From Lysobacter sp. MMG2 (lineage in GTDB: Bacteria > Pseudomonadota > Gammaproteobacteria > Xanthomonadales > Xanthomonadaceae), in NCBI RefSeq assembly GCF_016735495.2, contig NZ_JAERQY020000001.1, positions 1,302,001-1,366,000 on the forward strand: a DNA stretch of 64,000 nucleotides, given 5' to 3'. Each line of letters opens with the position of its first letter. Positions within the stretch are counted from its first letter, which is position 1. A program made the translations under genes and the position numbers. The notes under the pieces were generated by a model that was not told where the DNA came from, did not search any database, and saw nothing but the letters and a program-made list of their open reading frames with translations. This document shows positions 22,275-55,733 of this stretch, piece by piece.

Positions 22275-23069
22275 ATGACTGGACCCGCTCGACACCGCAA
22301 AGGCCCGCTTCTTGCGGCCACGCTGTGCACCCTCGCCTTCGCACTCGCGTTGCCGACGTCGGCAATCGCGGCCACCACCTGCCCGCTGGCGGCCGCGCAG
22401 GCACCTGCATCGCCATCGCAGGCACCGCTGGCGCCCGAGGACCGAACCTGCCTGATCGATGCGCGCGCGCTTGGCGCGAAGCCGGTGCTTTATGACCTGC
22501 GCAGCCGGAGCGACTACGCGTCCTTCCACATCCCCGACGCGCAACACGCCAGCGTGGCCGAAGTGTCCCGCCTGCTTCGCGACCGTCCCGGCGCGGTCGT
22601 GCTTTACGACGGCGGCAAGTTCCGCTCCGACGCCTTCCTGCTGTGCAAGCGCCTGCGCGATGAAGGCCTGAAGAATTTCAGGATCATCGACGGCGGCATC
22701 GCCGCGTGGGCGCAGGTGCAGCGTCGTGCGGAACGACTGGAAGTGAGCCGCCTGTCCGATGCGGAAGTATCGGCCGCGCTGTCGGACCGCAACGTTTCCG
22801 CGGTCGCGCTGAGCGACGGCTATGCCCCGGTGCTGTCCGAACACCGGATCCGGCAGGCCACCAAAGGCTCGACCGGAAGGAAGGTCCTGATCGCGGACAC
22901 CTTCATCCCGAGCGCACGGCTGGAAGCGTCACTGGATGGCAAAGGCGGGCCGGTGCTGTACTGGACCGGCGACCGCGATCGACTCGTCGCCCTGATCCAT
23001 ACGCACCTGCGCCAGGACCAGAAGCGGACCGCCGGTCCCGCGCAGTCAACCGCCTGCAGCGCGCTGTGA
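22275..23069 (+). CDS. Exported rhodanese-like protein lacking the catalytic cysteine
   Basis: A 264-residue protein with an N-terminal signal sequence (basic start, hydrophobic LLAATLCTLAFALALPTSAIA, cleavage after AIA). A rhodanese fold follows: VLYDLRSRSDYASFHIPDAQHASVAEV, the active-site loop VLYDGGKFRSDAFLLCKRL, and IIDGGIAAWAQV. In active rhodaneses the loop begins with a Cys six residues before the invariant R-S. Here that position is Asp112, so sulfurtransferase activity is not expected. A second, divergent domain follows (to about 245). The last 24 nt overlap the convergent pseudopilin gene. Periplasmic protein-protein recognition is a possible role. Confidence 0.75.
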   Translation: MTGPARHRKGPLLAATLCTLAFALALPTSAIAATTCPLAAAQAPASPSQAPLAPEDRTCLIDARALGAKPVLYDLRSRSDYASFHIPDAQHASVAEVSRLLRDRPGAVVLYDGGKFRSDAFLLCKRLRDEGLKNFRIIDGGIAAWAQVQRRAERLEVSRLSDAEVSAALSDRNVSAVALSDGYAPVLSEHRIRQATKGSTGRKVLIADTFIPSARLEASLDGKGGPVLYWTGDRDRLVALIHTHLRQDQKRTAGPAQSTACSAL

Positions 23070-23555
23070 TGACGGCGGCCGGCCCGGCAGGCGCATTTCG
23101 GCCGGGACGGGACTCGCCCTGAACACCCAGTCGGCGTAACGCAGCGCGTTCTCGAAGTCCGCGTCATCCGGATCGAAGCCGGAGACCTTCAGCGGGACGC
23201 GTTCGGACAACGAGTGGACGCCCACGATGGCCCCCTGCTCCAGCACCAGGCCCCACTCCGCCTTGCCGGTCAGGGGGTCGGCGTAGATCTTGCGCAGGTG
23301 GCGCTGGTTGCGGCCCATGCGACGGTCGAGCAACAACTCTTCGAGCGTGCGCGGATAAGCACGCGGCATCCCGGCATCGCGATAGCGGATGATCGCGCGC
23401 CTGAACTCGTCGCCGATGCGCAGCAGCTCGGCCTCGTTGGAACGGACCCGGTCGATGTGCTGGATGCTTGCCAGCGCCAGCGCCGAGACCGCCATCAACG
23501 CCAGCAGGAACAGCAGGAACAGGTAGGCGAATCCCGACTGCCGTCGCACGGTCAC
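23046..23555 (-). CDS. Atypical minor pseudopilin-like protein
   Basis: A 169-residue protein, last gene of the secretion block. A short basic leader RRQSG is followed by F-A-Y-L-F and a long hydrophobic helix, as in type IV prepilins. Residue 5 after the cleavage site is Phe instead of the usual Glu, as in GspK-type tip pseudopilins, but it is much shorter than GspK. The mature part carries EELLLDRRMGRNQRHLRKIYADPLTGKAEWGLV, a GspG-like C-terminal pattern. The GTG start at 23555 overlaps the upstream stop by GTGA. It likely caps or initiates the pseudopilus (inference). Confidence 0.72.
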   Translation of the reverse strand: MTVRRQSGFAYLFLLFLLALMAVSALALASIQHIDRVRSNEAELLRIGDEFRRAIIRYRDAGMPRAYPRTLEELLLDRRMGRNQRHLRKIYADPLTGKAEWGLVLEQGAIVGVHSLSERVPLKVSGFDPDDADFENALRYADWVFRASPVPAEMRLPGRPPSSQRAAGG

Positions 23556-23932
23556 AGTTCCGCGTAAGCCACGCCATCGGGCGTTGCGCCCTGCGCACCG
23601 CTGCGGACGTCGACGATGCCATCGACCTCGCCTTCGGGATCGTCCACCAGCACCCAGCTCTGCGCGCTTTCGCTGACCGGATCCATCGGCACGCCCTTGA
23701 GGTAATTGGCTTCCACCAACGCCTGCAGCGATTCGGGATAGACGCCCTTGTCCTCGTAATACCGGTCCAGGCTCGCGCGCAGGATGCGCAGGTTTTCCTT
23801 GAGCGCGGTCAGGCGGGCCGTCTGCACCGACGCCTGGTAGCGCGGCATGGCAATCGTCACCAGCGCGGCGATGATCGCCATCACCACCAGCAGTTCGATC
23901 AGGCTGAATCCACGTCGACGCGAAGCATCCAT
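23552..23932 (-). CDS. GspG/GspH-like pseudopilin
   Basis: A 126-residue type II secretion pseudopilin. The prepilin peptidase site is RRRG|FSLIELLVVMAIIAALVTIAMPRY, with Glu5 present. The globular part includes RYYEDKGVYPESLQALVEANYLKGVPMDPVSESAQSW, the standard GspG fold region. It overlaps the next gene by 4 nt and follows the preceding pseudopilin by 3 nt. It would be inserted in the inner membrane, cleaved and N-methylated by PilD, whose gene is not in this window. Confidence 0.9.
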   Translation of the reverse strand: MDASRRRGFSLIELLVVMAIIAALVTIAMPRYQASVQTARLTALKENLRILRASLDRYYEDKGVYPESLQALVEANYLKGVPMDPVSESAQSWVLVDDPEGEVDGIVDVRSGAQGATPDGVAYAEL

Positions 23933-23935
23933 CGC

Positions 23936-24415
23936 TCACCAGTCCTTGTAGGCAACACCGTTGAGACCGACGCCGTCGGAAAGACTGTGCACGTCGAACA
24001 CGTCATCGCCGGGAGCCGGATCGTCGGGAGGACTGTCGTAACTGCGCAGGCCCCAGGTGTCCTCCGGCGATGCTTCGCTTCCCGCGTAGAACGGGTCGCG
24101 CGGCAAACGCCGCAGGAAGTACAGCTGTTTGCGCTCCGGCGTGCTCACGTCCTCCACGCCTTCCACCAGCACCGTGAGGTCCGGCGGATAGCCGCTGGCG
24201 CCGCTTTCGACCTCGACCCTGCCCTGCTCGGCCGCGCGCTTGTAGCGATCGATCGCACCGCGGATCTGCGCCAGCGCGGTGCGCAGCTCGGCCTCGCGGT
24301 AGCGCTGCGTCGCCATGCGCGCCGCCGGCACCGCGATGAGCAGCAGCACCGCCATGATGGCGAGCGACGCCATCAGTTCGATGAAGCTGAAACCCGCGGC
24401 GCGGCGCCGGCTCAT
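23936..24415 (-). CDS. GspG-like pseudopilin
   Basis: A 159-residue prepilin-type protein. Leader MSRRRAAG, then F-S-F-I-E with Glu5 and a hydrophobic helix to about residue 32. RYREAELRTALAQIRGAIDRYKRAAEQG and RKQLYFLRRLPRDPF follow the GspG plan. The C-terminal region has an acidic loop DSPPDDPAPGDDVFDVHS that may bind calcium, as the GspG C-terminal loop does (inference). The start overlaps the secretin stop by 4 nt. Confidence 0.88.
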   Translation of the reverse strand: MSRRRAAGFSFIELMASLAIMAVLLLIAVPAARMATQRYREAELRTALAQIRGAIDRYKRAAEQGRVEVESGASGYPPDLTVLVEGVEDVSTPERKQLYFLRRLPRDPFYAGSEASPEDTWGLRSYDSPPDDPAPGDDVFDVHSLSDGVGLNGVAYKDW

Positions 24416-26718
24416 CGGACCTTGATCGCGACGCCGGCGGTGCGCGCAGGCCCGACCTGTTCCGGCGCGGGCGTGGCCGACAGCACGCGCACGTCGGTGC
24501 GGTCGGCCGCGGCCAGCGCCTTGAAGTTGATCTGCAGCAACGTGCCCTGGCCCGATACCGCCGTGCCCTGACGGGTCGCGGTGGCGACGATCTTTCCGTC
24601 CGACAGGTTCACCTGCTGCGTCAGCGTGCTCTGGCCGCCGCCCTGCGACATGAACATGCCTTCCTCGATGCCGACCACCTGCAGCACCTTGGGATCGAAA
24701 CCGATCAGCACGGGGAGCTGCTCGATCGCCTTCAACGCGCTGATGTTGAGCACCGCCGTGAACTGTTCGCCGGCGCGCACCTCGCCGGGCACTGCCCAGT
24801 CCAGCAGGACGTTGGACGAAGGCGGCAAGGGCTGCGCCTGCGCGGGCGCATCGGACGGCAGCGCCGACGGAACGGCGGCGCCCGGTGACGCCGCGCCCGC
24901 GCCGGTCGGCGCCGTCGCGGCAGGCGCCTGGGCTTCCGGCTCGGCCGGCGGCGGCGCGCCATTGCGGCCACGCAGATACGAAGCCGTGCCGCTCTCGAAC
25001 TCCATCTCGTCCAGCCCGGCATGACGCACGCCACGGACCAGGCGCGGCCGGATCGACAGCACGATCTCGGTGTTCTGAACGTCGTCCTTCTGCGTGCCGA
25101 AGATGCGGTTGAGGATCGGGAAGCGCGAGATGAACGGCCAGCCGTTGGCGACCTGTCGATCCTCCTTGTTGATCAGGCCGGCGAGGATCTGCATCTCGCC
25201 GTCCTTCAGGCGCAGCACGGTCTGCGCGTTGCGCGTGCCGATCTGGTAGGACAGCGTGCCCGACTTGGTCACGATCTCGCGCACCAGGTTGCTGACCTCC
25301 AGGCTCACCTTGATCGAAACCTCGTCGCCGGCATAGACGGCGGGCTCGACCTCGAGCTTCAGGCCCACGTCCACGTAGTTGACCGTTTCCGACACGAAGC
25401 CCGTCGAAGTGGACGTGGAGGTGATCACCGGCACCTTGTCGCCGATGAGGATGCTCGCCTTCTCCTTGCTCTTCACGCGGATCTTCGGATTGGCGAGGAT
25501 CTTCGCGTCCGAGCGTTCGTCGTGCAGCTTCACCGTGGCATTGGGCACGGTGGCGAAGATCGAATCGGAGTTGAGGTTGCGCAGCTGGCTGATCGGCAAT
25601 GCGGTGTTGGTCTGCCCCGGCCCGACCACGGAGAACGCGATCTCGTCCGGCAGGCTGATGCCCATGTCGAGCAGCGAAGAGCGCTTGACCTCCAGCACTT
25701 CCACATCGAGCACCACCTCCGGTTCGCCAATGTCCTGCAGCGCGACCAGGCGTTCGGCCAGGCGGATGGCGTCCGGGCTGTCGCGCATCACCAGCATGTT
25801 GAGCTTCTCGTCGACGACGAGGTTCTCGCTCTTGAGGATGGTCTTGAGCGTTTCCGCCACGGTCTTGGCCTGCGCATTGGCCAGGTAGAACGTGCGGATG
25901 TTGAGCTGGCGGTAATCGCTGATCTTCTGCGGCGTGCGCGGAAAGACCATCACCGAGTTGTTGTTGAGCGGCCGCGTTTCCAGGTTCGTCGACAGGCCGA
26001 TCATGCGGATGGCCTCGTCCAGCGGCGTCTTGCGCAGGAACACGGTGACTTTCAGGTCCGGGCGGATGTCCTGGTCGTAGACGAAGTTGATGCCCGACGC
26101 GTTGGACAGCACTTCGAACGCGGTCTTCACCGGCACATCGCGGAACTCGAGCGTGACGGGCTTGCGGAACTGCTCGCCGAGGGTGTCCTCCCGGGCCTTC
26201 TTGCTCGCCACCGCGGTGCGGATGCGGTCCAGGCTGTTCTGCGCGCGCAGGTTGTCCGGCGCTTCGGCCAGCACGTCGCGCACGCGCTCCTCGGCCTGGT
26301 CCAGCTCACCGGCGGCAATCAGCTCGTCGATCTTCATCAACTCTTCGTTGTGCCGACGCATCGCCGCCAGGCGACGCAGCCATTCCTGCGCCGCGCTGTT
26401 GCCGGGCTCGATCTGCAGGATGGTCTGATACGCGCCCTCGGCCTGCGCGAAATTGCCCTGCTGGCGCGCGCGCTCGCCGTCGCGGAACAGGGTCTCCAGG
26501 GCAAGGCGCTTCTTGAACAGATACTGCTGGCGGTAGCGCACATCGTGGGGACTGGCCGCGGAGACGGCCTCGTACTGGGCGACCGCCTGCACGTAGTCGC
26601 CGTCCTCGAACAAGCGGTCGGCCTTGCGGAACTGTCCCGCCGCGCCACAGCCGGCCAGCAGCACGGCGGCCGCCAGCACCAGCATTCCCCGCGCGCGACG
26701 CGCATAACGTGTGTGCAT
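24412..26718 (-). CDS. Lipoprotein secretin (GspD/MshL-like) with C-terminal cohesin-like domain
   Basis: A 768-residue outer-membrane channel subunit. Order: lipoprotein signal with lipobox LLAGC (Cys24); TPR-like helical repeats (about 30-165); STN domain (188-240, VTLEFRDVPVKTAFEVLSNASGI); secretin N1-type domain (270-335); secretin core (about 390-560, VGLKLEVEPAVYAGDEVSIK and LLINKEDR-like LAGLINKEDRQVANGWPF). An Ala/Pro-rich linker (585-638) then leads to a beta-sandwich (640-768, GEQFTAVLNISALKAIEQLPVLIGFDPKVLQVVGI) that looks like a cohesin. The ATG at 26718 has GAGG upstream; the ATG at 26733 is an alternative. The N-terminal TPR plus terminal cohesin differ from classical GspD. Confidence 0.92.
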   Translation of the reverse strand: MHTRYARRARGMLVLAAAVLLAGCGAAGQFRKADRLFEDGDYVQAVAQYEAVSAASPHDVRYRQQYLFKKRLALETLFRDGERARQQGNFAQAEGAYQTILQIEPGNSAAQEWLRRLAAMRRHNEELMKIDELIAAGELDQAEERVRDVLAEAPDNLRAQNSLDRIRTAVASKKAREDTLGEQFRKPVTLEFRDVPVKTAFEVLSNASGINFVYDQDIRPDLKVTVFLRKTPLDEAIRMIGLSTNLETRPLNNNSVMVFPRTPQKISDYRQLNIRTFYLANAQAKTVAETLKTILKSENLVVDEKLNMLVMRDSPDAIRLAERLVALQDIGEPEVVLDVEVLEVKRSSLLDMGISLPDEIAFSVVGPGQTNTALPISQLRNLNSDSIFATVPNATVKLHDERSDAKILANPKIRVKSKEKASILIGDKVPVITSTSTSTGFVSETVNYVDVGLKLEVEPAVYAGDEVSIKVSLEVSNLVREIVTKSGTLSYQIGTRNAQTVLRLKDGEMQILAGLINKEDRQVANGWPFISRFPILNRIFGTQKDDVQNTEIVLSIRPRLVRGVRHAGLDEMEFESGTASYLRGRNGAPPPAEPEAQAPAATAPTGAGAASPGAAVPSALPSDAPAQAQPLPPSSNVLLDWAVPGEVRAGEQFTAVLNISALKAIEQLPVLIGFDPKVLQVVGIEEGMFMSQGGGQSTLTQQVNLSDGKIVATATRQGTAVSGQGTLLQINFKALAAADRTDVRVLSATPAPEQVGPARTAGVAIKVR

Positions 26719-26729
26719 CCTTACCTCGA

Positions 26730-27221
26730 TCATTCCAGCAGCGCGGGGTCGCTCACGGCATAGCGCCGCGATTCCCCCGTGGGCATATAGGTGAAGTTGG
26801 CGAAGCCGCCGCCGATCTCGTCGAAGCGGTACAGGTCTTCGACCATCTCGGTGCGCTTGAGCGTGTAGCTGGTGTCGTTCCATTCCACGAACACGTGGGG
26901 CACCGACCCGGACTGCATCCAGCCCAGCACTTTCAGGTCGGCCGGCGCGGCGGCAACGGGGGCCGCAGGCGCAGCTGGCGCGGGTACGGGTGTCGGCGGC
27001 GCGGCGTCAGCCGCGAACAACGCAGCGGGGAACGCATCGCTCTCGCGCTCCTGCACCGTGGGCAGTTCGGACTTGCGTTGCGCGCGCGCGATCGGGGCCG
27101 TCGTCGTGCGCACCGGCGCCGCTTCCACCGTCGTGGTGTCGGCCGGCGACTCGCCGCCGAACAGCGCCAGCGCCGCCAGGACGATCGACGAATACGCCAT
27201 TGGCCGGAAGTAGCGCTTCAC
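26730..27221 (-). CDS. PilP/GspC-position inner-membrane protein
   Basis: A 163-residue protein. The GTG start at 27221 overlaps the upstream stop (GTGA), giving MKRYFRPMAYSSIVLAALALFGG, a single membrane anchor. An Ala/Pro-rich linker (about 85-110) leads to a small beta domain LKVLGWMQSGSVPHVFVEWNDTSYTLKR...ANFTYMPTGESRRYAV. The layout (TM, proline linker, small beta domain contacting the secretin) is that of GspC/PilP. Sequence similarity is too weak for a firm name. It ends just before the secretin start, the usual PilP-PilQ order. Confidence 0.65.
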   Translation of the reverse strand: MKRYFRPMAYSSIVLAALALFGGESPADTTTVEAAPVRTTTAPIARAQRKSELPTVQERESDAFPAALFAADAAPPTPVPAPAAPAAPVAAAPADLKVLGWMQSGSVPHVFVEWNDTSYTLKRTEMVEDLYRFDEIGGGFANFTYMPTGESRRYAVSDPALLE

Positions 27222-27781
27222 GGCGCCTGATCTCCCTCGCTTGCCGGCGTGGTCAGCGCGACGGCGACCTGCAGCTCCGCGGTGACCAGCGGATCGCCGG
27301 GCTGCTCGCGTTCCAGGCGCAGTCGGGCGATGTAGAGCGAGCGGTCCGAGGCCTGCAATGCCGCCAGCGCCTTGGCGATCTCGCTCCACGGCGCCTTGAG
27401 CGTGAACACCGCCGTCTGCCGCACGAAGCCCGCGTCGTCGACGTTCTCGAACTTGAAGCGGATCTGCTCCGGCGCCACTGCCGCCGAGCTGAGGGCATCG
27501 AGGATGCGGCGGTTGATGTGGAAACGCTGCGAGAGCTCCGGCAACGGCAGGGCATCGTCGGGAGCCTGCTGGGCGATCGCTTGCGGTGCGGCGCGAAGCG
27601 CTTCCAGGCGTGCGCTCAGGGCCTGCTCGGTACGGTGCAAACGCAGGGCGTCCAGCGCGAGCGAGAGCATCAGGCCCAGCGCGACGACGGCTCCGGCCAC
27701 CGCCAACACGAACACCGCACCGTGGCGAAGGTAGCCACGGTTGAGCGCCCACACCAGTTTCCGCGGGTCTACTGCGCCCAT
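27218..27781 (-). CDS. PilO/GspM-like inner-membrane protein
   Basis: A 187-residue bitopic protein. The cytoplasmic N terminus MGAVDPRKLVWALNRG is followed by one membrane helix (about 22-45), a coiled-coil start (LHRTEQALSARLEALRAA) and a periplasmic ferredoxin-like region ending SLYIARLRLEREQPGDPLVTAELQVAVAL. The motif S-L-Y-I-A-x-L-R-L followed by a final beta strand is like PilO. It overlaps the upstream gene by 13 nt. It should form the alignment complex with the PilN- and PilP-like neighbours. Confidence 0.7.
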   Translation of the reverse strand: MGAVDPRKLVWALNRGYLRHGAVFVLAVAGAVVALGLMLSLALDALRLHRTEQALSARLEALRAAPQAIAQQAPDDALPLPELSQRFHINRRILDALSSAAVAPEQIRFKFENVDDAGFVRQTAVFTLKAPWSEIAKALAALQASDRSLYIARLRLEREQPGDPLVTAELQVAVALTTPASEGDQAP

Positions 27782-28284
27782 CGCGCGCTCACTTCGAAAT
27801 GGATGCCGCCGTTCTTGCGCTCCAGCAACAGCAGCCGCACGTCGTGCAGCCCGTGCCCGCGCGCCTGCAATGCCTCCGCGTAGGCGTTCGCTTCGGCCGA
27901 ATCGCCGGCATGTCCGGTGATGCGGATCGCGGCGGTGGTTGCGTTGACGTCCACGCCCAGCAGGCGCACCGCGCCCTTGGCGGGAACGATCTCCTGCAGC
28001 AGCTTCACCCAGTCGCGATTGAGCAGCGCGATCTGCGACTGGAGCTGACGCACCTGTGTCGCACTGCGCTGTTCGCTCGGCGGAGCGCGACGCGGAGTCG
28101 CCGCCGGGCGGCGCTGCATCGCTTTGTCCAGTTGCCGTTCGCGATGCTGCAATCGTGCGTCCACGCCGGAGCGCGCATAAGCGAGCACGCCGATTGTCAG
28201 CACGACGCATGCGAGCAGAGCGCACGCCAGGGCACCCGGCCGCTGCGCCCCCAGGCGCCATTCGATCCGCGGCAGAAGACTCAT
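27769..28284 (-). CDS. PilN/GspL-like inner-membrane protein
   Basis: A 171-residue bitopic protein. It has a short N terminus, one membrane helix (PGALACALLACVVLTIGVLAYA, about 17-38), and a coiled coil with HRERQLDKAMQRR and QVRQLQSQIALLN. A periplasmic ferredoxin-like domain follows with GVDVNATTAAIRITGHAGDSAEANAYAEALQARG. PilN and GspL periplasmic domains have this plan. The start at 28284 overlaps the upstream stop by ATGA; an ATG at 28290 is possible. Part of the alignment complex by position. Confidence 0.7.
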   Translation of the reverse strand: MSLLPRIEWRLGAQRPGALACALLACVVLTIGVLAYARSGVDARLQHRERQLDKAMQRRPAATPRRAPPSEQRSATQVRQLQSQIALLNRDWVKLLQEIVPAKGAVRLLGVDVNATTAAIRITGHAGDSAEANAYAEALQARGHGLHDVRLLLLERKNGGIHFEVSARWAQ

Positions 28285-29039
28285 GCGCATGCGGCCACCA
28301 GTGCATGACCGGCCGATGCCGGCGCATCGCCTTGAACGGGCAACAGCGTGCCGGCGAACGCGTCCGGCGGCGCGGCCGAACCCAGCCAATGCAACGCGTT
28401 GTCGTCGGCAAACGCGAAACGCTTGCGCGACAGCCACAGCGTCGCATCAGCCAGCCCGTGCCCCTGCGCGGACAGGGTTTCCACCTGCACCAGCCGGCCC
28501 CGCTCCAGGGTGATGCCGGTGATGCCGTCGTCCTCGGCATATGCGAGCAGCGCGCTCGCCGTCGATGCGAGCGTGCCACCGTAGCGCCGCAGCACCGGCA
28601 CCACGCTGGCGACCGTGGACTGCACGCGGCCGCCGCCGGTCTGCAGCGCGTTGCGCACGGTTTCGACCAGCGCGCGCGGATAGGCGACCGCGGGCACCGG
28701 CTGCCCGTAAGCGGGCCAGTCGATCTCGACGTGGTGCGAGGTGTCGCTTACTTCGTGTCCGGCGAACATCGCCATCACCGATGCGCGGATCGACGCGCCG
28801 GTGAAACAGTCCGACACCCACGGCGCGACGAGGAAGCGGCACAGCCGCGCCGACAGCACCAGGCGCACCGTGCCGATCGCCTTGAAGTGCGTCGACAGCG
28901 TCTGCACGATGCGCGCCCACTCCGCCGCATCGGGTTCGCCACCGCCGTGCTCGCCGGCGATCGCGCCGCCCGCGTCGCCGGGTCGCAGGGCGACCCACGT
29001 GGTGCTGGCGACGTAGAGGTGGATGGGAGGGCTTGGCAC
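28281..29039 (-). CDS. PilM-position protein of the secretion operon
   Basis: A 252-residue soluble protein without membrane segment or signal peptide. It lies where pilM or the GspL cytoplasmic domain would be, directly after gspE and before the PilN-like gene. I see no clear actin-like nucleotide motif, so it may be a degenerate PilM. There are GAIAGEHGGGEPDAAEWARIVQTL, RLVLSARLCRFLVAPWVSDCFTG and a C-terminal RLVQVETLSAQGHGLADATLWLSRKRFAF, the latter weakly like the second ribonuclease-H-fold subdomain of PilM. The start GTG at 29039 is inferred from a GGAG upstream and is not certain. Confidence 0.55.
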   Translation of the reverse strand: MPSPPIHLYVASTTWVALRPGDAGGAIAGEHGGGEPDAAEWARIVQTLSTHFKAIGTVRLVLSARLCRFLVAPWVSDCFTGASIRASVMAMFAGHEVSDTSHHVEIDWPAYGQPVPAVAYPRALVETVRNALQTGGGRVQSTVASVVPVLRRYGGTLASTASALLAYAEDDGITGITLERGRLVQVETLSAQGHGLADATLWLSRKRFAFADDNALHWLGSAAPPDAFAGTLLPVQGDAPASAGHALVAACA

Positions 29040-29044
29040 GACGA

Positions 29045-31914: not shown

Positions 31915-32139
31915 GAACCGACCTTCATTGGCGCGTCCTTCGGACGCCTATGCCCCTGCCTGGCGACCACCGCCGCGCGTGCCATGGCACGCATCACGGC
32001 GGGCCCGCCGGATGCCGTGCCTGTACCCGCGCAACGATGGTTCCCCCCGTTCCGTCATTCCCGTGATCCGCGTCCGGCATCCCCATCGCCGTTGTCGCGA
32101 CCCACGTTTCCCCTTGCTCTTGTTGTGGTTGGCCTTCCC
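31915..32139. other. 225-nt gap between gspF and the major pseudopilin gene
   Basis: The only sizeable gap within the secretion half of the block. I see no hairpin with a U-tract, no promoter pair that I trust, and no coding frame. It could carry a processing site, or a weak promoter for gspF onward. Confidence 0.3.
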
Positions 32140-37264: not shown

Positions 37265-37265
37265 A

Positions 37266-42200: not shown

Positions 42201-42265
42201 CCCTTCTTTCCCTTCCATCGTTCGTTCGCGCCCACGCGCGGGCGTCTGCATCCAGCGGGGCGGCA

Positions 42266-48706: not shown

Positions 48707-48758
48707 GGTGACCGCACGTCCCTGCCTGCGTTGTTTCCAGCTGCCGATGCCGGTTGCT

Positions 48759-50306
48759 TCAACCCTTGAAGCCGATCTCGCTCAATGCCTCGTAAGGCAG
48801 GTCGAACGATTTGCCGCTGTCGGTGATGAGCCTCGCGCGCGCGCCGCCGTGCAGCGCCACGGTCACCTCCACCTTTTCCACGCGCTCGTTCTGCGCAAGT
48901 CGCGAGAGCTTCTCGCGCAGCGCTTCGTCTTCCAGCGCGGCGATGACGACGGTGTAGGTGGTGGTGGCCTGCAACGTGCTCGATCCACGTGGCAGCGTCA
49001 CGGAGACCTGCGCGGTTCCCGCTGCCGTGGTTCCGGTGATGGCGGGGCTGATCGCCTCGCTGGGCGTTCCGGACGCCGGCACGATGCGCAACTGCACCGT
49101 GTTGCCGACGGGCACGTTGGTGGTCTCGAATCCGACCACCACCGGACCGGTCGTGGTGTCCGGCAGGTTCACGTCGTTGGTGCCCGTGGGAACCGCCGCG
49201 ACGGCCTGGCCGGCGACGGAGGAAATACGCAACGCCGGCGCATTGGCGATGAACACCGGGCCGATGTCGCCGCGCACGTAGGTGGGCTGCGACGTGCCGT
49301 TGTAGGTGACCGATTCGCCTTCGATGCGGATGCGACCTTCGGAGCCGCCGTAGACGCTCCTGCCGTCGTAGCCGCAGTACTGGCGCCGGTTGCCGTTGTA
49401 GTTGATGCAGCCGCCGGACGCATAGACCGTGCCGTTGCCTGCGACGGTGGTTGCGACCAGTCGGATCGCGCCGCCGGAACCGCCCGCGCCCTGACCGCCG
49501 GCACCGGTGCCTCCATGTCCTGCACCATCGCCGCCCGTCGCGTCGACGCTGCCGGTAATCCTCAGCGTGCCCGACGACGCGATCAGGATCGCGCCACCAC
49601 CGCCGCCGCCGCCGGAACCGGGATAGTTGGTGCCGCCCCGGCCACCACCGCCGCCGGAACCACCCACCAGCGGCTGCAGCAGCGTCGAGCCGTACGAGAG
49701 GCCCGCGGGACCGTAGTTCGCGGCGCACTGGTGCGTGGTGTAGTACTTGTAGGCGTTGTTGGCGTAGCCGCCGCCCGTGCCGACGTACTTGTAGTAGCCA
49801 CCCGCGGGCGTGCAGCCGTCGCCGCCTTCGATACCGCCCGGACCACCGCCCGGCCCGAGTCCGGCACCACCGCGGATGATCTCCACGCGTTGCTGCGCAT
49901 CGCCGCCGCCGCCGCGACCACCGCGGAAGCCGCCCGGGCCACCCTCGCCCGGCAAGGCGTCATCGGCCTGGGCGCCATTGCCGTAAGTGCCGGTCGGCTT
50001 TCCATCCTCGCCGCGCACGTCGATCGTGCCGGCGATGGTCACATCACCGCTGGCCAGGATGTACACCGGCGTGTTGGCGGCATTGCGCTTGAACTTGACG
50101 CTGACGCCGACGGGAATGTTGATGGTGGTGTAGTTGAGGATGCCCGACGGCGGCAGCTGGATCTCGGTGCTGGCCGTCGGATTGAGCACGCCGTCGGCAC
50201 CGGTGCTGCCGCTGTCGAACGCGGCCCATGCCGTCGGCGCGAAGAGCGCCGCGACGAGCGCCATCGCCAACGACGCCTGCGTCGGCGCGCGGAACTGCTG
50301 ATTCAT
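48759..50306 (-). CDS. Exported glycine-rich beta-helix-like protein, copy 1
   Basis: A 515-residue protein with a signal peptide (MNQQFRAPTQASLAMALVAALF, cleavage after AWA). The N-terminal part is SGSTGADGVLNPTASTEI followed by AGDVTIAGTIDVRG-like strands. Long Gly-rich loops follow (GGPGGFRGGRGGGGDAQ, GGSGGGGGRGGTNYPGSGG), which suggest a Gly-lined beta-helix. The C-terminal 60 residues end LSRLAQNERVEKVEVTVAL and then PYEALSEIGFKG. It is a close tandem paralogue of the next gene. GGAG lies 6 nt upstream of the ATG. No enzymatic motif was seen. Matrix or filament-sheath function is inference. Confidence 0.8.
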   Translation of the reverse strand: MNQQFRAPTQASLAMALVAALFAPTAWAAFDSGSTGADGVLNPTASTEIQLPPSGILNYTTINIPVGVSVKFKRNAANTPVYILASGDVTIAGTIDVRGEDGKPTGTYGNGAQADDALPGEGGPGGFRGGRGGGGDAQQRVEIIRGGAGLGPGGGPGGIEGGDGCTPAGGYYKYVGTGGGYANNAYKYYTTHQCAANYGPAGLSYGSTLLQPLVGGSGGGGGRGGTNYPGSGGGGGGGAILIASSGTLRITGSVDATGGDGAGHGGTGAGGQGAGGSGGAIRLVATTVAGNGTVYASGGCINYNGNRRQYCGYDGRSVYGGSEGRIRIEGESVTYNGTSQPTYVRGDIGPVFIANAPALRISSVAGQAVAAVPTGTNDVNLPDTTTGPVVVGFETTNVPVGNTVQLRIVPASGTPSEAISPAITGTTAAGTAQVSVTLPRGSSTLQATTTYTVVIAALEDEALREKLSRLAQNERVEKVEVTVALHGGARARLITDSGKSFDLPYEALSEIGFKG

Positions 50307-50379
50307 GGGGTAGCTCCTGTTACGCGCATGCGATGCGGCGGCTTGCGGGTGTCGGGTGGTGATCTCGGCCATGGTCTGC

Positions 50380-51924
50380 TCAGCCCTTGAACCCGATCGC
50401 GCTCAGCGCGGCGTACGGCATCTCGAACGTCTGTCCGCTGCCGGTGATCAACTTCGCGCGCGCACCGCCTTCCAGCGCGACGGTCACTTCGACCTTCTCG
50501 ACGCGTTCGTTCTGCGCCAGGCGCGACAACCGTTCGCTGAGCGCTTCGTCCTGCAGCGAGGCGACGGTGACCGTGTAGGTCGTCGTGGCCTGCAATGCGC
50601 TGGGCCCCTGCGGCAGCGTCACCGACGCGTCGGCCGTGGCCGCCGCGGTGCTTCCGACAAGCGCGCCACTGACCGCCGCGCTGGGCGTGCCGTAAGCGGG
50701 CACGACGCGCAACTGGATCGTGTTGCCCAGCGGCACGTTGGTGGTTTCGAACGCCACCACCACCGGGCCTGTCGTGGACGCCGGCAGCGTCACGTCGTTG
50801 GTGCCGGTCGGCACCGCCGGCACGGCCTGGCCGGCCACGGAGGAAATGCGCAGCGAAGGCACACTGGTGAGGAACACTGCGCCGATCTCGCCGCGAACGT
50901 AGGCCGGCGAGGACGTACCGCTGTAGGTGATGGACTCGCCTTCGATGCGGATGCGCCCTTCGGAGCCGCCCCACTCGTCGCTGCGTCCGGTGGCACCGCA
51001 TCGCTGGCGTCGCGCATTGTTGTAGTTGATGCAGCCGCCCGCAGCGAGAAGCGAGCCCGTACCGGCCACCGTCGTGGCGATCAGTCGGATGCCGCCGCCC
51101 GAACCGCCCGCACCCTGACCGCCGACGCCCGTGCCGGTGACACCACCGCCGTCGCCACCGGTCGCGTCGACGCTACCGGTGACGCGCAATGTTCCAGAGG
51201 AGGCGATCAGCACGGCACCACCGCCGCCACCGCCGCCCGAGCCGGGATAGTTGGTGCCGCCGCGCCCACCACCACCGCCTGAGCCGCCCACCATGGGCTG
51301 CATGAGCGCCGAGCCGTAGGGGTCGGCTGCGGGCGTGGTCATCGTGCAGTGATACATGTAGACCTTGAGCGCCTTGCTCGCGTAAGCACCACCAATGCCG
51401 GCGTACTTGTAGTGACCCGTGGTGGCGTTGCAGCCATCGGCTCCCTCGACACCACCCGCACCACCACCCGGCCCCAGGCCACCACCGCCGCGGATGATCG
51501 CCGCACGCTGCTGCGTGTCGTCGCGTCCACCGCGTCCGCCTTCGAAGCCGCCGGGACCGCCTTCGCCGGGAATGCCGTCGTCGCCCTGCGCGCCGTCGCC
51601 GTAGGTGCCCGCGTGCTTCGCATCCGCGCCGCGGACGTCGATCGTGCCGGCGATGGTCACGTCACCCGACGCCAGGATGTACACCGGCGTGTTCGCGGCA
51701 TTGCGCTTGAACTTGACGGTGACACCGGTCGGGATGTTGACCGTCGTGTAGTTGAGGATGCCCGACGGCGGCAACTCGATCTCGGTGTTGACCGTCGGAT
51801 TCAGGACCCCGTCGGCGCCGGTGCTTCCGCTGTTGAAAGCGGCCCAGGACGTCGGCGCGAAGAGCGCCACGACGAGCGCAGTCGCCAACGATGCGCGCGT
51901 CGGCAGTCGGAGAGGCTGATTCAT
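50380..51924 (-). CDS. Exported glycine-rich beta-helix-like protein, copy 2
   Basis: A 514-residue paralogue of the downstream copy, with the same signal peptide type (MNQPLRLPTRASLATALVVALF), the same GSTGADGVLNPTVNTEIELPPS start, the same Gly-rich middle and the same C-terminal tail (LSRLAQNERVEKVEVTVAL, PYAALSAIGFKG). Divergence is concentrated in the Tyr/Thr/Cys-rich insert near residues 190-220 and in the segment after GGCINYN. The intergenic sequences before both copies are also similar in layout. Probably a tandem duplication with the two products exported together. Confidence 0.8.
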   Translation of the reverse strand: MNQPLRLPTRASLATALVVALFAPTSWAAFNSGSTGADGVLNPTVNTEIELPPSGILNYTTVNIPTGVTVKFKRNAANTPVYILASGDVTIAGTIDVRGADAKHAGTYGDGAQGDDGIPGEGGPGGFEGGRGGRDDTQQRAAIIRGGGGLGPGGGAGGVEGADGCNATTGHYKYAGIGGAYASKALKVYMYHCTMTTPAADPYGSALMQPMVGGSGGGGGRGGTNYPGSGGGGGGGAVLIASSGTLRVTGSVDATGGDGGGVTGTGVGGQGAGGSGGGIRLIATTVAGTGSLLAAGGCINYNNARRQRCGATGRSDEWGGSEGRIRIEGESITYSGTSSPAYVRGEIGAVFLTSVPSLRISSVAGQAVPAVPTGTNDVTLPASTTGPVVVAFETTNVPLGNTIQLRVVPAYGTPSAAVSGALVGSTAAATADASVTLPQGPSALQATTTYTVTVASLQDEALSERLSRLAQNERVEKVEVTVALEGGARAKLITGSGQTFEMPYAALSAIGFKG

Positions 51925-52070
51925 GGTGTAGCTCCTTGAACGGGTATGCGTTGCGTCGTGCTGGGATGAGATGTCGCCCGCGGCATGCGGCGCGGACCGG
52001 GCATCGCGGCAATGCGCGTCGCGCATGCCGCATGGGCCGCCGGATTCGTGGGCGCTTGAACGGTGCAGGG

Positions 52071-55000
52071 TCATGGGCCGGCCACCACGGTGAGGGTGTT
52101 GGCCACGCTCGGTGTCGCGGACGTCACGCCACCGGGCACCTTCAGCTGCAGCACGCGCTGCCCCGTCGTCGCGCCCGCGGCGATGTGCACGGTGACCTTC
52201 AACTGTTCGCCCGTTGCGTCCTGCGACCACACCGGCGCGCCGACCTGCGTGAATCCGTCGGCCGGAGTGAAGACCGCACCAGTGACGCCGGCGAGGTCGC
52301 GGCCACGCACGGTCAACGTCACGGTCTCGCCCGTGTTGAGCACGATCGGCGAAACCGAATCCATCGACGGCACGCGTCCGATGCCGAACGAGGCCAACGC
52401 GCCGGACTGCCAGACGACCTCACCGCTGCTCGTGCGCAGGCGCAGGCGGCGCGAGCCCAGGGCCGCGTCCTGCGCGACGCTGACCGGAACATCGAGTTCG
52501 GTGCCCGACGCATTGGCCGACACCGTGCCGAACAGGATGCCGGCGCTCGGCACGGCTTCCACCGACGTCACCTGTCCCAGATCGACGCCATGGATGCGCA
52601 GCGTGTCGGAGACGCCCTGCAGCCAGCCATCGGCCGACTTGCCGCGCGCCACACTGCCCACCAGCAGGCCGACGGTGTTCGCGGTCGGCATCAGGTCGAC
52701 CGGCTGCGGCGGCAACGGCTCTTCGATCACCATCACGCCCACGGTCGGTGCGATCAACGCACCGTCGTAGGTCTGGCTCTGGCCCGCGCCGACGCGCACT
52801 CCGACCGCCGGCGACATGATCGCCGGGTAGGCAGGACCGGTCTGCGCGGCCAGCACCACCGTGTTCGCAGGCGACGCTTCGGCAGCGGAATCGCCGGCGG
52901 CCGTCGTCACGATCAACTTGCGCGGGCCCGTGGTGGCCGCAGCGTCCACCTGCACGGCGAAGGCCAGCGTGTTGCCGCCGTCGCTCGCGGTGAACGGACG
53001 GATCACGGTGATGCCCGCGGCCGGCACGAAGCGCACGTCGACCACGTTGTCGAGGTAACGGCCACGCACGGTCAGCGTCTGCGCCGTGCCGCCCAGTGTC
53101 AGCACCTGCGGCGCGATGGATTCGACCATCGGCGGCGGCGTGGACACGAGGAACGCACCGTCGTTGACGTTGGCAAAGGCCATCGGGCCTGCCGGCGTGG
53201 CGAGCACCAGGCGGCGCAGGCCGAGCACCGCGTCGGCGGCCACGGTCACCGGGAAGGTCAGCTCGCTGCCATCGCCCGCGACGGTCGGCGTGCCCACCGT
53301 GAGTCCCGTCGCCGGCACGAACGACACCGCGTTGACGTCCTGCAATCCCTGTCCCTGCACCTTCACCGTGACGGTCGAACCCACGATGCCGGTGCGCGGC
53401 GTCACGCCGGTGGCGCTGGCGCCCACGACCACGCCCAGGTGCTGCATCAGCACCGGCACGATCTGCTGCGGATCCGGTGCGCGTTCGCCCACGCTCACGC
53501 CGACCAGCGGCGCGGTCCACGCATACGTGGACTCGATGGCGCCCACCACGTGCAGCGTGTTGGCGCTGGTGGCGTCGGCCGGACTGGTGCCGGTGACGCT
53601 GGACACCTGCATGGCCCGCGAACCCAGCGCGGCAGTGGAACCGACATGCACCATGGCCGTCAGCTCCGTGCCGTCGGCATTGATCACCGGCTGCGCGTCG
53701 ATCTCGATGTCGCTGCCCGGCGTGACGCTCAGCTTCGCGTCACGCAGGTTGCGACCGCGCACGACCATGGACACCGTCGAGTTGCGGGTGACGGTGATCG
53801 GCGAGATCGAGTCGATCCTGGGCAGGCCCGCCGCCAGGTACACGGTCCCGCTGGCCGCGTTGGCGAACGCGAGCAGCGAACCATTGTTGTCGCGCACGAC
53901 CACACGCCTCGGGCCGCTCTCGGCATCGCCGGTCGTCGTCACCGGCACGCTCAGGGACGTTCCATCCGGCGACACCGTTGCGGCGCCCAGCGTGAGTCCG
54001 TCCGCAGGCACGATCGAAACCAGCGAGCCTGCGGGGATCGCGGCGCCGAGGATCTGCAGGTTCTGCGTCGTGCCCGCGGTCCAGCCATTGGGAACGACGT
54101 CGCCCAGCACCGCACCGACGCCCACGCCAACGAGGCTGTTGGGCTTGGTCTCGCGTGTTTCGCCGCCCACCGGACCACCGGCGACGGTGACACCCACCGG
54201 CGGGGCGTAACTGGTGTTGATGCCACGGAAATCAGGCGTGATGAAGATCGGCGTCGAGCTGTTGCCCAGCGTGGCCGACTGCGCGATCAGCGTGACCGAA
54301 CCCTGCACCAGCGGCGTGATCGTCACGCGCGCGGTGAGCTGGCCCGCGGCGATGGTGAGCGATGCCGGAGTGACCGTGGCCTTGGCCGGATCGGACACCG
54401 AGAAGTTGATGGTGTGGTCGCGGATATCCGCCTTGGACAGACGCAGCGTGATGTCGTGCGCCTTGTTGTCCGGCGGCATCGCGATCGGCGTCGGTTCGAA
54501 ACTCACCGTCGGCGGCACCGGCATCTGCACGGTGAGGTTCACCGAGTTCGACAGCAGCGGCGGACTGCCGCCGGCCGGATGCGGATTGCGCACCTGCAGC
54601 GGCAGCACCGCGGCGGCGCTCTGGTTCGGGAGCGTGGCGCGCAGTTCGCCGCCACTTACGTACTGCGTCGGAAGTCCGGCCGAGTTGACCAGCACTTCCG
54701 ACTGCGCGCTGAAGTTGCGCCCGGTGACGACGATTTCCGAAACGCCCACGCCCGCGATCACGGTCGCGGGCACGATCTGCGTCACCGCCGGGATCGGCGG
54801 CGTCACGGTGAGTGCATTGGGCAACACGAGTTCGCCGGCGTCCACGCGCAGCGACAGCGCGGCGGGCCCCAGCGCCGCATCGGCATTGGCCTTGAGCTGG
54901 AAGCTCAAGCGCGACGAGGAGCCGCCGCTGATCGGCGTCACCGTCAGGCCGCTGTTGTCGACCGCCCCTGCCGCAAAGCCATCCAGGCGCACGCCATCGA

Positions 55001-55733
55001 CCGCCACGGACACGGTCTGTCCCTGTTCGATGGTGGCCGGCGTGATCTGCGATACCGCAGGCGAGCGGCCCACCGAAACGGTGCCGCTACGCACCACGTA
55101 CGGAATGCCCGACAGGTTCCACTTGACGCTGCCGACGATGTCACCGGCCGGCACTTCGATGCCGTTGACATCGTTTCCGCTGGCCTTGTTGCCGACACCG
55201 GAGGGCGAAGCCGCCAGGTCGATGCTGATCGCAGGGCCCTGGCTGTTGCGGATGTCCAGGTAGTTCAGCACCGGCGAAGCACCGTTCACCACCAGGCCGC
55301 GTCCGTGCTCGAAACGTACATGCTCAAGACGCGTGGTGGCGGTGGCGCCCGGTCCGAACGTCCAGGTGCCGTAGTCGCCGGCGGCCGGCGCCTGTCCGCG
55401 CAGTGTCTTGACGGAAAGCACGCGGATCGGCTGCGTCACGGTGCCGAGCGCGCGGAGGCTGCCCGCCTGCACGTTCACGCTCGCACCGGCTTCCATGTAC
55501 ACCGTTACGCCCGCGTCGATGGTGAGCGTCGCGGCGCTCTGCACCAGCAGGTTGCCCGACACCACGTACGGACTGTTGGCAAGCGTCCAGCGCGCATCGG
55601 TGGCGATGGAACCGCTCACCGCCGTCTCGGCGCGGGAGTTCGGAGCGAAGGCGAGCGACAGCGTCGCCATCATGAGCAGCACAAGCAGTCGCCAGAGCGG
55701 AACGGCACGCGCCGGCCCCGCGCCTTGCGTCAT
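52071..55733 (-). CDS. Large exported IPT/TIG-repeat protein
   Basis: A 1220-residue protein, first gene of the block. A signal peptide follows the start at 55733 (WRLLVLLMMATLSLAFAPNSRA; a longer frame from 55802 is possible). A beta-helix-like part lies at about 45-190 (LLVQSAATLTIDAGVTVYMEAGASVNVQAG). At least six IPT/TIG-like Ig domains with the recurring SISPITVTRNSTVSMVVRGRNL pattern follow, interspersed with a V-G-V-x-V-G signature (GVGVGAVLGDVVPNGW, PLVGVSVG, AVGVRVGAG). The signature repeats at each domain boundary and is not typical of IPT proteins. No anchor was found. It is likely secreted or surface-exposed. Confidence 0.8.
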   Translation of the reverse strand: MTQGAGPARAVPLWRLLVLLMMATLSLAFAPNSRAETAVSGSIATDARWTLANSPYVVSGNLLVQSAATLTIDAGVTVYMEAGASVNVQAGSLRALGTVTQPIRVLSVKTLRGQAPAAGDYGTWTFGPGATATTRLEHVRFEHGRGLVVNGASPVLNYLDIRNSQGPAISIDLAASPSGVGNKASGNDVNGIEVPAGDIVGSVKWNLSGIPYVVRSGTVSVGRSPAVSQITPATIEQGQTVSVAVDGVRLDGFAAGAVDNSGLTVTPISGGSSSRLSFQLKANADAALGPAALSLRVDAGELVLPNALTVTPPIPAVTQIVPATVIAGVGVSEIVVTGRNFSAQSEVLVNSAGLPTQYVSGGELRATLPNQSAAAVLPLQVRNPHPAGGSPPLLSNSVNLTVQMPVPPTVSFEPTPIAMPPDNKAHDITLRLSKADIRDHTINFSVSDPAKATVTPASLTIAAGQLTARVTITPLVQGSVTLIAQSATLGNSSTPIFITPDFRGINTSYAPPVGVTVAGGPVGGETRETKPNSLVGVGVGAVLGDVVPNGWTAGTTQNLQILGAAIPAGSLVSIVPADGLTLGAATVSPDGTSLSVPVTTTGDAESGPRRVVVRDNNGSLLAFANAASGTVYLAAGLPRIDSISPITVTRNSTVSMVVRGRNLRDAKLSVTPGSDIEIDAQPVINADGTELTAMVHVGSTAALGSRAMQVSSVTGTSPADATSANTLHVVGAIESTYAWTAPLVGVSVGERAPDPQQIVPVLMQHLGVVVGASATGVTPRTGIVGSTVTVKVQGQGLQDVNAVSFVPATGLTVGTPTVAGDGSELTFPVTVAADAVLGLRRLVLATPAGPMAFANVNDGAFLVSTPPPMVESIAPQVLTLGGTAQTLTVRGRYLDNVVDVRFVPAAGITVIRPFTASDGGNTLAFAVQVDAAATTGPRKLIVTTAAGDSAAEASPANTVVLAAQTGPAYPAIMSPAVGVRVGAGQSQTYDGALIAPTVGVMVIEEPLPPQPVDLMPTANTVGLLVGSVARGKSADGWLQGVSDTLRIHGVDLGQVTSVEAVPSAGILFGTVSANASGTELDVPVSVAQDAALGSRRLRLRTSSGEVVWQSGALASFGIGRVPSMDSVSPIVLNTGETVTLTVRGRDLAGVTGAVFTPADGFTQVGAPVWSQDATGEQLKVTVHIAAGATTGQRVLQLKVPGGVTSATPSVANTLTVVAGP

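What the first reader, a model, noticed from the sequence alone, without database searches (positions are those of the whole stretch)
23046..55733. A 33-kb co-directional block joins a T2SS/T4P-like machine to giant surface proteins and an RHS toxin
All seventeen genes from the IPT protein to the last pseudopilin are on the minus strand, mostly with overlaps or gaps under 250 nt. The first half encodes very large exported beta-repeat proteins. The second half encodes GspG, GspF, GspE, four alignment-type proteins, a secretin and three pseudopilins. Canonical T2SS operons lack such cargo genes and contain GspC-M in a different order; the PilM-N-O-P-like order before the secretin is more like MSHA/T4P. 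I infer a dedicated exporter that builds a surface matrix or filament from its own operon-encoded cargo and may deliver the RHS toxin. I do not recognise this combination as a characterised system.
Basis: partly seen in the sequence, partly recalled or inferred. Interest (0 to 1): 0.88.

Follow-up and report, generated by a model that had tools for sequence, protein, structure and literature searches.

The report
Portable toxin-and-secretion island in Lysobacter
A 34-kb block of DNA that appears to have moved as one piece between soil bacteria carries its own protein-export machine together with a variable toxin, an immunity-type gene beside it and several very large exported proteins, which looks like a self-contained weapon kit that we could not find described.

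Summary
The window is Lysobacter. The block is real and co-directional: 18 minus-strand genes (an immunity-type gene was missed) plus a convergent rhodanese-like gene. It is a discrete insertion, about 22191-56309: 10 of 10 other species of the genus examined have the two flanking genes abutting. One of these, L. arvi, carries the same block at another site; Burkholderiales, including an Eleftheria terrae replicon, carry the same order. The machine is an 11-gene T2SS/type IV pilus hybrid (GspG-F-E, PilM-N-O-P-like, TPR/cohesin secretin, three pseudopilins), distinct from the genome's canonical T2SS and PilB. Elsewhere this machine family sits beside other loads (chitinase in two Lysobacter, MnxG in Pseudomonas). 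Machines with this RHS/FN3/BIG load form one GspE clade (10 of 10 tested, moderate support), and 7 of 7 full-length FN3 homologues in 399 genomes lie 1.8-9 kb from that GspE. The RHS protein is a polymorphic toxin with exchanged tips. Best reading: a mobile islet encoding a dedicated T2SS-like exporter for an RHS toxin plus surface scaffold. Against a strict machine-cargo bond: related FN3/BIG/RHS sets occur without the machine. Export and toxicity are untested.

The parts
22191..56309 (.). whole inserted unit (about 34.1 kb; ends good to some 15 nt)
   Evidence: in 10 of 10 other-species genomes of the genus examined the flanking genes 21296-22183 (+) and 56310-57167 (-) abut; alignments of five, base-level junctions of four
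56047..56076 (-). promoter-like site (TTGCAA-18-TATGAT) before the first gene
   Evidence: consensus scan: 1 found, 0.1 expected in shuffles; the same two hexamers are readable in L. arvi
52071..55733 (-). IPT: large exported protein, IPT/TIG domain
   Evidence: PF01833 4e-7; signal-peptide-like start read by eye; 77% in L. arvi; named IPT/TIG in E. terrae
50380..51924 (-). GlyA: glycine-rich exported protein
   Evidence: no Pfam match; 86% in L. arvi; 78% nucleotide identity to GlyB's counterpart in the same-species genome
48759..50306 (-). GlyB: glycine-rich exported protein
   Evidence: no Pfam match; 86% in L. arvi
42266..48706 (-). BIG: 2146-aa exported protein with bacterial Ig, fn3 and CarboxypepD_reg domains
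   Evidence: Pfam; 89% in L. arvi; relatives in Burkholderiales
37266..42269 (-). RHS polymorphic toxin: signal-peptide-like start, RHS core, PT-HINT, Tox-REase-9-like tip
   Evidence: tips differ among relatives
36614..37264 (-). immunity-type protein (DUF4304), starting 1 nt after the RHS stop
   Evidence: PF14137 1.3e-16, on a slightly longer frame; start and gap
32571..36428 (-). FN3: 1285-aa exported multi-Ig protein; its N-terminal region 24-440 recurs in other large proteins
32140..32577 (-). GspG-type major pseudopilin
   Evidence: TIGR01710 157.8 bits, cut-off 88.85
30733..31914 (-). GspF/PilC-type inner-membrane platform
   Evidence: PF00482; below the NCBIfam cut-offs listed
29045..30736 (-). 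GspE/PilB-type ATPase of a distinct clade
   Evidence: PF00437 7.3e-123; trees
28281..29039 (-). protein in the PilM position; no sequence match; confident AF2 model
   Evidence: conserved position; pLDDT 83, pTM 0.82; no relevant Pfam or PDB match
27769..28290 (-). PilN-like
   Evidence: window protein matches nothing; PF05137 among family members
27218..27799 (-). PilO/GspM-like (start uncertain, 27715 to 27799)
   Evidence: PF04350, PF10741 and PF04612 among family members
26730..27200 (-). PilP-like
   Evidence: conserved position; weak profile match to PilP 2ivw (E 0.037)
24412..26733 (-). secretin with lipobox-like start, TPR, STN, secretin and C-terminal cohesin domain
23936..24415 (-). 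pseudopilin 1
   Evidence: N_methyl
23552..23932 (-). pseudopilin 2
   Evidence: N_methyl, weak T2SSG
23046..23555 (-). pseudopilin 3 (divergent)
   Evidence: no Pfam match; found in the family by profile
22275..23069 (+). rhodanese-like protein with signal-peptide-like start, convergent and inside the insertion
   Evidence: PF00581 4.3e-9; L. arvi counterpart read by eye; co-directional rhodanese-like gene after the pseudopilins in E. terrae

Best explanation
The 34-kb block is a horizontally transferred islet that encodes a dedicated, non-canonical T2SS-like exporter and its load. Proposed working: (1) one promoter before IPT drives the run (inferred). (2) IPT, GlyA, GlyB, BIG, FN3 and RHS enter the periplasm through Sec (signal-peptide-like starts seen). 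(3) The ATPase and GspF, with the genome's single prepilin peptidase, assemble a short GspG pseudopilus on a PilMNOP-like platform and push the folded cargo through the cohesin-tailed secretin (inferred from the families). (4) The Ig- and glycine-rich giants stay at or near the surface as a scaffold that holds the RHS shell; its HINT-preceded nuclease-type tip reaches competing bacteria, while the DUF4304 protein, encoded directly behind it, protects the producer and its kin (inferred). Shown: gene content, insertion as one unit, presence at unrelated sites, co-inheritance of load and machine, tip exchange. Not shown: secretion, location, killing, immunity.
For: Flanks abut in 10 of 10 other species of the genus; 8 of these 10 have no GspE of this family at E 1e-100, one has only a chitinase-type machine, and one, L. 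arvi (G149 = G628), has the block at another site with unrelated flanks. Same order on an E. terrae replicon, and whole or shortened in G150, G193, G314, G368, G501, G399, G188. 7 of 7 full-length FN3 homologues among 399 genomes lie 1.8-9 kb from a GspE of this kind on the same strand, although only 86 of 399 genomes have one. The 10 cargo-bearing GspE are one side of a branch (88/76; 86% of 200 bootstrap trees; 0 of 500 shuffles as low). An RHS core gene lies within 10 kb of GspE in 8 of 80 family loci, 0.71 expected (p 3e-7); without the three cargo-module genomes 6 of 77, 0.67 expected (p 4e-5). Tips by Pfam: REase-9-like, Tae4, HNH, LHH, EHHH, unknown (several below cut-off). Precedent: the RHS bacteriocin Bcn-A loses activity in a T2SS secretin (xpsD) mutant (PMC7259588, passages).
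Against: Related FN3(N-terminal)/BIG/RHS sets occur without this machine beside them (5 of 5 loci opened; the N-terminal type is in 10 of 399 genomes, none of them with this GspE at E 1e-120). Of the 20 load-bearing genomes searched, 10 with the machine and 10 without, 19 have a canonical GspE over the cut-off, so another T2SS could export the load. Most machines of the family have other or no evident cargo. The PilM-like protein has no sequence match and its fold could not be compared. Support joining the Lysobacter pair to the Burkholderiales is moderate. An immunity-type family was recognised beside the RHS gene only in the window (DUF4304) and, by annotation, E. terrae (ankyrin); in G150, G314 and G188 the called gene after RHS is one shared small protein, not a variable one. 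No experiment.
Confidence: 0.62

Rival explanations
1. The load is exported by the genome's canonical T2SS (or another route); the hybrid machine is an unrelated pseudopilus-type device that was linked by chance and is carried along.
For: Load sets without this machine exist, and 19 of the 20 load-bearing genomes searched have a canonical GspE over the cut-off. Bcn-A of Xanthomonas depends on the ordinary Xps secretin (PMC7259588, passages).
Against: 7 of 7 full-length FN3 sit beside this machine. The load-bearing machines form one GspE clade, load and machine are found together at unrelated sites, and the FN3 and GspG genes overlap by 7 nt. Other branches of the machine also sit beside secreted enzymes.
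Confidence: 0.22
2. The giants are a surface matrix or adhesion layer made for the producer's own biofilm; the RHS protein is structural or a kin-recognition part rather than a weapon.
For: Most of the coding length of the load is Ig- and glycine-rich exported protein. Giant proteins that share the FN3 N-terminal region occur without an RHS gene in the stretches opened.
Against: The RHS tips fall in different nuclease and amidase families while the core is kept; RHS is in all five machine-less sets opened.
Confidence: 0.12
3. A silent or decaying island: transferred but not expressed or functional in this host.
For: Absent at this site from 10 other species of the genus; Variovorax G151 carries a rearranged, probably broken copy.
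Against: All 19 frames are open in the window. The same-species genome has the block at 99.3-99.6% identity. 17 of the 18 minus-strand genes have open counterparts in L. arvi; the DUF4304 place holds other small genes.
Confidence: 0.04

Closest known systems
Canonical type II secretion system (Gsp/Xps)
   Same: GspG equivalog cut-off met; GspE, GspF and secretin homologues; presumed Sec-then-secretin route
   Different: GspE, GspF and GspD score far below equivalog cut-offs (479/630, 212/424, 112/351 bits); in place of one GspL there are PilM-position and PilN-like proteins; no GspC match; large exported proteins in the same run; separate GspE clade
Type IVa pilus (PilB-C, PilMNOPQ)
   Same: M-N-O-P-secretin order; PilN and PilO Pfam matches in family members; weak PilP match
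   Different: PilB and PilQ cut-offs not met (446/675, 129/284 bits); no PilT/PilU in the block; major subunit is GspG-type
RHS polymorphic toxins, including Xanthomonas Bcn-A (PMC7259588) and the Sec/T2SS class of Zhang et al. 2012 (PMC3482391); passages of both seen
   Same: signal-peptide-like start, RHS core, HINT, exchanged C-terminal tips, adjacent immunity-type gene; Bcn-A activity needs a T2SS secretin
   Different: here the toxin is packaged with an exporter and five giant or glycine-rich exported proteins in one mobile unit
[quoted passage not shown] title seen only in reference lists)
   Same: in Pseudomonas the machine of this family directly follows an mnxG-type gene run (MnxG match 1.7e-61)
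   Different: whether that published pathway is this gene set could not be checked (paper not held); the neighbour is an oxidase, not a toxin set

Membership tests
canonical T2SS | GspG major pseudopilin | tested here: met
   TIGR01710 157.8 bits over 88.85
canonical T2SS | GspE equivalog | tested here: not met
   479.2 bits, cut-off 630.25; separate branch, SH-aLRT 100 in a quick tree
canonical T2SS | GspD equivalog | tested here: not met
   112.4 bits, cut-off 351.35
canonical T2SS | GspC, single-chain GspL, GspM | tested here: not met
   the window's M, N, O and P proteins have no Pfam match; 48 family members (12 of each) gave PilN 9, PilO 5, T2SSM_b 4, T2SSM 1 and no T2SSC or GspL model; so GspM-like in part, GspC and GspL not found
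type IVa pilus | PilB and PilQ models | tested here: not met
   446.3/675.65 and 129.1/284.35 bits
type IVa pilus | PilM-N-O-P-secretin order | tested here: inconclusive
   order fits; N and O by Pfam in relatives, P weak, M by position and AF2 model only
MSHA pilus | MshL secretin | tested here: not met
   82.1 bits, cut-off 250.2
RHS polymorphic toxin | Rhs_assc_core | tested here: met
   TIGR03696 79.8 bits over 32.5
RHS polymorphic toxin | conserved core with exchanged tips | tested here: met
   L. arvi has a Tae4 tip, G314 LHH; among the nine proteins compared some tips keep partial likeness (G193-G501 31 of 66 aligned residues, HINT end included)
RHS polymorphic toxin | toxic tip neutralised by the neighbour | not testable with these tools
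   no experiment; Tox-REase-9 is below its Pfam cut-off (24.9/27.3), but GxxxH, E, D and ELKP of the published motif are readable; the published YxxE is not clearly there
T6SS-delivered Rhs | PAAR/VgrG part | tested here: not met
   no such Pfam match in the RHS protein
Tc (TcdB/TcaC) toxin | SpvB/TcdB domains | tested here: not met
   no such Pfam match in the RHS protein

The most novel reading that the evidence does not exclude
A separate, mobile class of toxin-delivery system: a clade of T2SS/T4P-hybrid machines that exports one multi-protein surface weapon (IPT, glycine-rich, BIG and FN3 scaffold plus exchangeable RHS tip with immunity) and passes as one islet between Lysobacter and Burkholderiales. 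It would be the T2SS counterpart of T6SS- and T5SS-delivered polymorphic toxins, within a wider family of 'one machine, one adjacent cargo' exporters.
Probability: 0.35. Interest if true: 0.9.

Novelty: new variant of a known kind. Interest (0 to 1): 0.78.

Why it matters
Sec-exported RHS toxins are filed under 'T2SS' as the default pathway, without a signature exporter gene in the neighbourhood (Table 1 passage of PMC3482391). Here exporter, toxin, immunity-type gene and candidate scaffold are in one portable unit, with natural empty sites in ten sister species, so both secretion and antagonism become testable by clean deletions. The wider machine family, with lineage-specific neighbours (chitinase, MnxG, nuclease), offers a way to study how a T2SS-like machine recognises its substrate, which I recall as a long-open question.

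Tried and rejected
Considered and rejected: MSHA or T4aP membership (cut-offs not met); T6SS or Tc delivery (no PAAR, VgrG, SpvB or TcdB match in the RHS protein); a chance run of genes (synteny and empty sites); an integrase- or tRNA-borne island (no tRNA in the window; longest direct repeat between the two edges 11 nt; no integrase or transposase model among the Pfam matches of the block, though GlyA, GlyB, pseudopilin 3 and the M, N, O and P proteins match nothing). Led nowhere: PDB profile of the PilM-position family; Pfam on GlyA and GlyB; literature searches for the combination found no description; a search for gene names of the published Mn-factor pathway found nothing of use.

Rows dropped before counts: one search dropped two short GspE rows (L207, L208) and used 92 of the remaining 160; one search used the 10 cargo rows and 58 others, sampled by locus number plus chosen extras, not all. 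In one search, of 21 FN3 hits, 7 were full length, 10 N-terminal only, 1 a C-terminal piece at a contig end (G261) and 3 weak hits in ORFs above 7000 aa; only the 7 enter '7 of 7'. Five of the ten N-terminal loci were opened. In one search the broken Variovorax copy (G151) was left out, and of G193's two RHS genes one was compared. In one search the eight near RHS genes were assigned by me from contig coordinates and from the in-locus hits; three further loci with YD-repeat pieces but no core match nearby (L041, L061, L085) were not counted.
Full report
OBSERVATION. The window lies in a 4.17-Mb genome of 10 contigs. L. arvi is in the same genus group: its genome G149 is the genome G628 of the genus search. 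Searches confirm the block on the minus strand. Pfam gives IPT/TIG; bacterial Ig, fn3 and CarboxypepD_reg in the 2146-aa protein; RHS repeats, PT-HINT and a Tox-REase-9-like tip; DUF4304; Ig-type domains in FN3; T2SSG, T2SSF, T2SSE; and a TPR-STN-secretin-cohesin protein. The 17 gaps run from -31 to 225 nt and 8 are overlaps with the starts chosen. The DUF4304 start lies 1 nt after the RHS stop (TGA-T-ATG).

THE MACHINE. Among system-specific NCBIfam models only GspG's cut-off is met; ATPase, platform and secretin score below the GspE, PilB, GspF, GspD, PilQ and MshL cut-offs. The order G-F-E-M-N-O-P-D-pp-pp-pp recurs in most of the 80 best GTDB loci, chiefly Betaproteobacteria and Pseudomonas, with losses at contig ends. 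In the Pseudomonas loci no GspF or GspG was found at that place. Family members match PilN (9 of 48 proteins scanned, 12 of each family pooled), PilO (5), T2SSM_b (4) and T2SSM (1); the P family weakly matches PilP (E 0.037). The M family has no relevant match, but its AF2 model is confident (pLDDT 83); its strand and helix order is what I would expect of an actin-like fold, by eye only, because the fold search was off. All 17 secretins scanned have STN, Secretin_N and Secretin, 9 of 17 also Cohesin. In a GspE tree of 92 rows the family is a 47-row branch with SH-aLRT 100, apart from canonical GspE and PilB-type rows; it is a quick tree with long branches flagged. The genome also has a canonical GspE (690 bits, over the cut-off), a PilB-type ATPase, and one prepilin-peptidase match close to it, which the island machine would have to share.

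ONE INSERTED UNIT. Twelve genomes of the genus were examined. The window's genome and a same-species genome (G631, 99.3-99.6% nucleotide identity over the block) have the block here. In the other 10 of 10 the EamA-type gene (21296-22183) and the epimerase-type gene (56310-57167) abut, with further neighbours on both sides in the same order. In the five aligned, left homology ends at 22181-22193 and right homology begins at 56310 (three) or 56326 (two); base-level junctions of four are. A GspE search at E 1e-100 finds the family in 4 of the 12: own, same species, G129 (chitinase-type only) and L. arvi. L. arvi thus has this site empty and the block elsewhere, between unrelated genes: homology runs from 22377 to 56077 at 80-88% nucleotide identity, except 36456-40954 (most of the RHS core and tip and the DUF4304 gene), which has no match over 150 nt. 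The unit runs from a promoter-like site to a rhodanese-like gene. I found no integrase or flanking repeat, so how it moves is unknown.

RECURRENCE ELSEWHERE. Among 399 genomes drawn from the family of Roseateles cellulosilyticus (G150), FN3 has 21 hits and this GspE is in 86 genomes. Of the 21, 7 are full length, and 7 of 7 are on the same contig and strand as GspE, 1.8-9 kb away. G193 and G314 have IPT, glycine-rich, BIG, RHS, FN3 and machine (G193 with a second RHS gene between FN3 and GspG); G150, G368 and G501 have BIG, RHS, FN3 and machine; G399 and G188 are cut by contig ends; Variovorax G151 is rearranged. In G150 and G314 my gene caller splits RHS in two. In 72,556 plasmid records FN3 has 4 matches at E 1e-30 and one covers over 80% of it: Eleftheria terrae, whose 784-kb replicon carries, as annotated, IPT/TIG, hypothetical, Ig-like, RHS, ankyrin, hypothetical (the FN3 match), GspG, F, E, three hypotheticals, cohesin, three pseudopilin-type proteins, rhodanese, transglutaminase. 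In a careful tree of 68 rows the 10 cargo-bearing GspE are one side of a branch (88/76, 86% of 200 bootstrap trees, 0 of 500 shuffles as low); E. terrae is not in that tree.

OTHER CARGO. A congener (G129) and a second machine of L. arvi have a GH18 chitinase directly upstream of GspG, 78% alike. In Pseudomonas the seventh co-directional gene upstream of GspE matches MnxG (PDB 9bxa, 1.7e-61), and this gene clusters in 10 of 80 loci, nine Pseudomonas and one Azoarcus. A Pseudoduganella locus (L050) has a lamin-tail/endonuclease protein that clusters with two Duganella ones. Other loci have upstream genes that I did not examine or that look like ordinary genes. RHS cores lie within 10 kb of GspE in 8 of 80 loci, 0.71 expected.

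AGAINST A STRICT BOND. Ten of 399 genomes carry an FN3 N-terminal relative (ORFs of about 1000-1660 aa) and none of the ten has this GspE at E 1e-120. Five were opened: 5 of 5 have BIG and RHS relatives beside it, 2 of 5 an IPT relative, none an adjacent machine of this family; in G449 a GspE/GspF-type pair further along the 60 kb falls with the PilB-type rows. Of 20 load-bearing genomes searched, 10 of each kind, 19 have a canonical GspE over the cut-off. The load can therefore exist without the machine, perhaps served by the ordinary T2SS. Methylomonas plasmids match only the FN3 N-terminal part; in the one opened it lies beside rhodanese and transglutaminase genes, and no machine or RHS gene is annotated in the stretch.

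TOXIN. Window against L. arvi RHS: 80-91% alike over residues 101-400, 39-59% over 501-1300, nothing aligned after 1500, while FN3, BIG and GspE are 92, 89 and 91%. Tips by Pfam: window PT-HINT plus Tox-REase-9 (below cut-off); L. arvi Tae4; G150 HINT plus HNH (below cut-off); G314 HINT plus LHH; G368 HINT plus EHHH (below cut-off); G193 and G501 HINT plus unknown; G399 and G188 unknown; machine-less G246 phospholipase A2-like (below cut-off). G368 and G501 cores are 90% alike over the stretch compared; G193 and G501 tips keep 31 of 66 aligned residues, HINT end included. The RHS-FN3 gap is 0.85-1.9 kb in the eight loci measured. What fills it: DUF4304 in the window, genes of 149 and 81 aa in L. 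arvi, an ankyrin protein in E. terrae, a shared 130-133-aa protein in G150, G314 and G188 (61-99% alike) and a shared 73-96-aa one in G368 and G501 (86%); so an immunity gene is recognised by family only in the first and, by annotation, in E. terrae. The published Tox-REase-9 record lists GxxxH, E, D, ELKP, HINT, RHS repeats and export 'T2SS' (PMC3482391, passages); that paper uses T2SS for the Sec default. Bcn-A, an RHS bacteriocin of Xanthomonas, loses activity in an xpsD mutant (PMC7259588, passages).

JUDGEMENT (my odds). Island and co-inheritance: about 0.95. RHS as an antibacterial-type polymorphic toxin: about 0.85. Island machine exports at least part of the load: about 0.7. All of it acting as one surface weapon: about 0.35-0.4. 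The type IV filament superfamily is known to hold many unassigned 'generic' systems (PMC6668835, passages), so the machine is a variant of a known kind; the packaging with a polymorphic toxin and giants is what I did not find in print (searches; open-licence PMC only). That GspL corresponds to PilM plus PilN, that one prepilin peptidase can serve several systems, and the signal-peptide and lipobox calls are recalled knowledge applied by eye.

Noticed in passing
L259 (second machine of L. arvi); L009 (congener G129): A machine of the same family with a GH18 chitinase directly upstream of GspG, 78% alike between the two genomes.
   Followed up: partly
L069 and nine other loci (L043, L046, L079, L082, L083, L086-L089): In Pseudomonas (and one Azoarcus) the machine directly follows an mnxG-type gene run (MnxG match in L069, SCO- and SurA-like genes by eye); the adjacency was not mentioned in the passages read.
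   Followed up: partly
L113, L114, L115 (G478, G229, G536): ORFs above 7000 aa that match the FN3 N-terminal region; in G478 and G536 the machine lies about 65 kb away on the same contig.
   Followed up: no
L261 (Methylomonas koyamae plasmid, mobilizable): FN3 N-terminal relative with rhodanese, transglutaminase and a neighbouring annotated beta-helix protein of about 4660 aa on a MOBH plasmid.
   Followed up: no
L085 and L119 (Variovorax, G151): FN3 and RHS pieces on opposite strands beside an otherwise conserved machine: a rearranged, probably broken copy of the load.
   Followed up: no
L020 (G157): Four RHS core matches in a row on one contig, divergent from the machine.
   Followed up: no
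Burkholderiales loci G150, G314, G188 (after RHS): A shared 130-133-aa protein with a hydrophobic start follows the RHS gene: perhaps a partner of the toxin rather than its immunity protein.
   Followed up: partly
window 36300-42300: G+C is 0.55-0.66 across RHS and its immunity-type gene, against about 0.68 around, in line with exchange of this part.
   Followed up: partly
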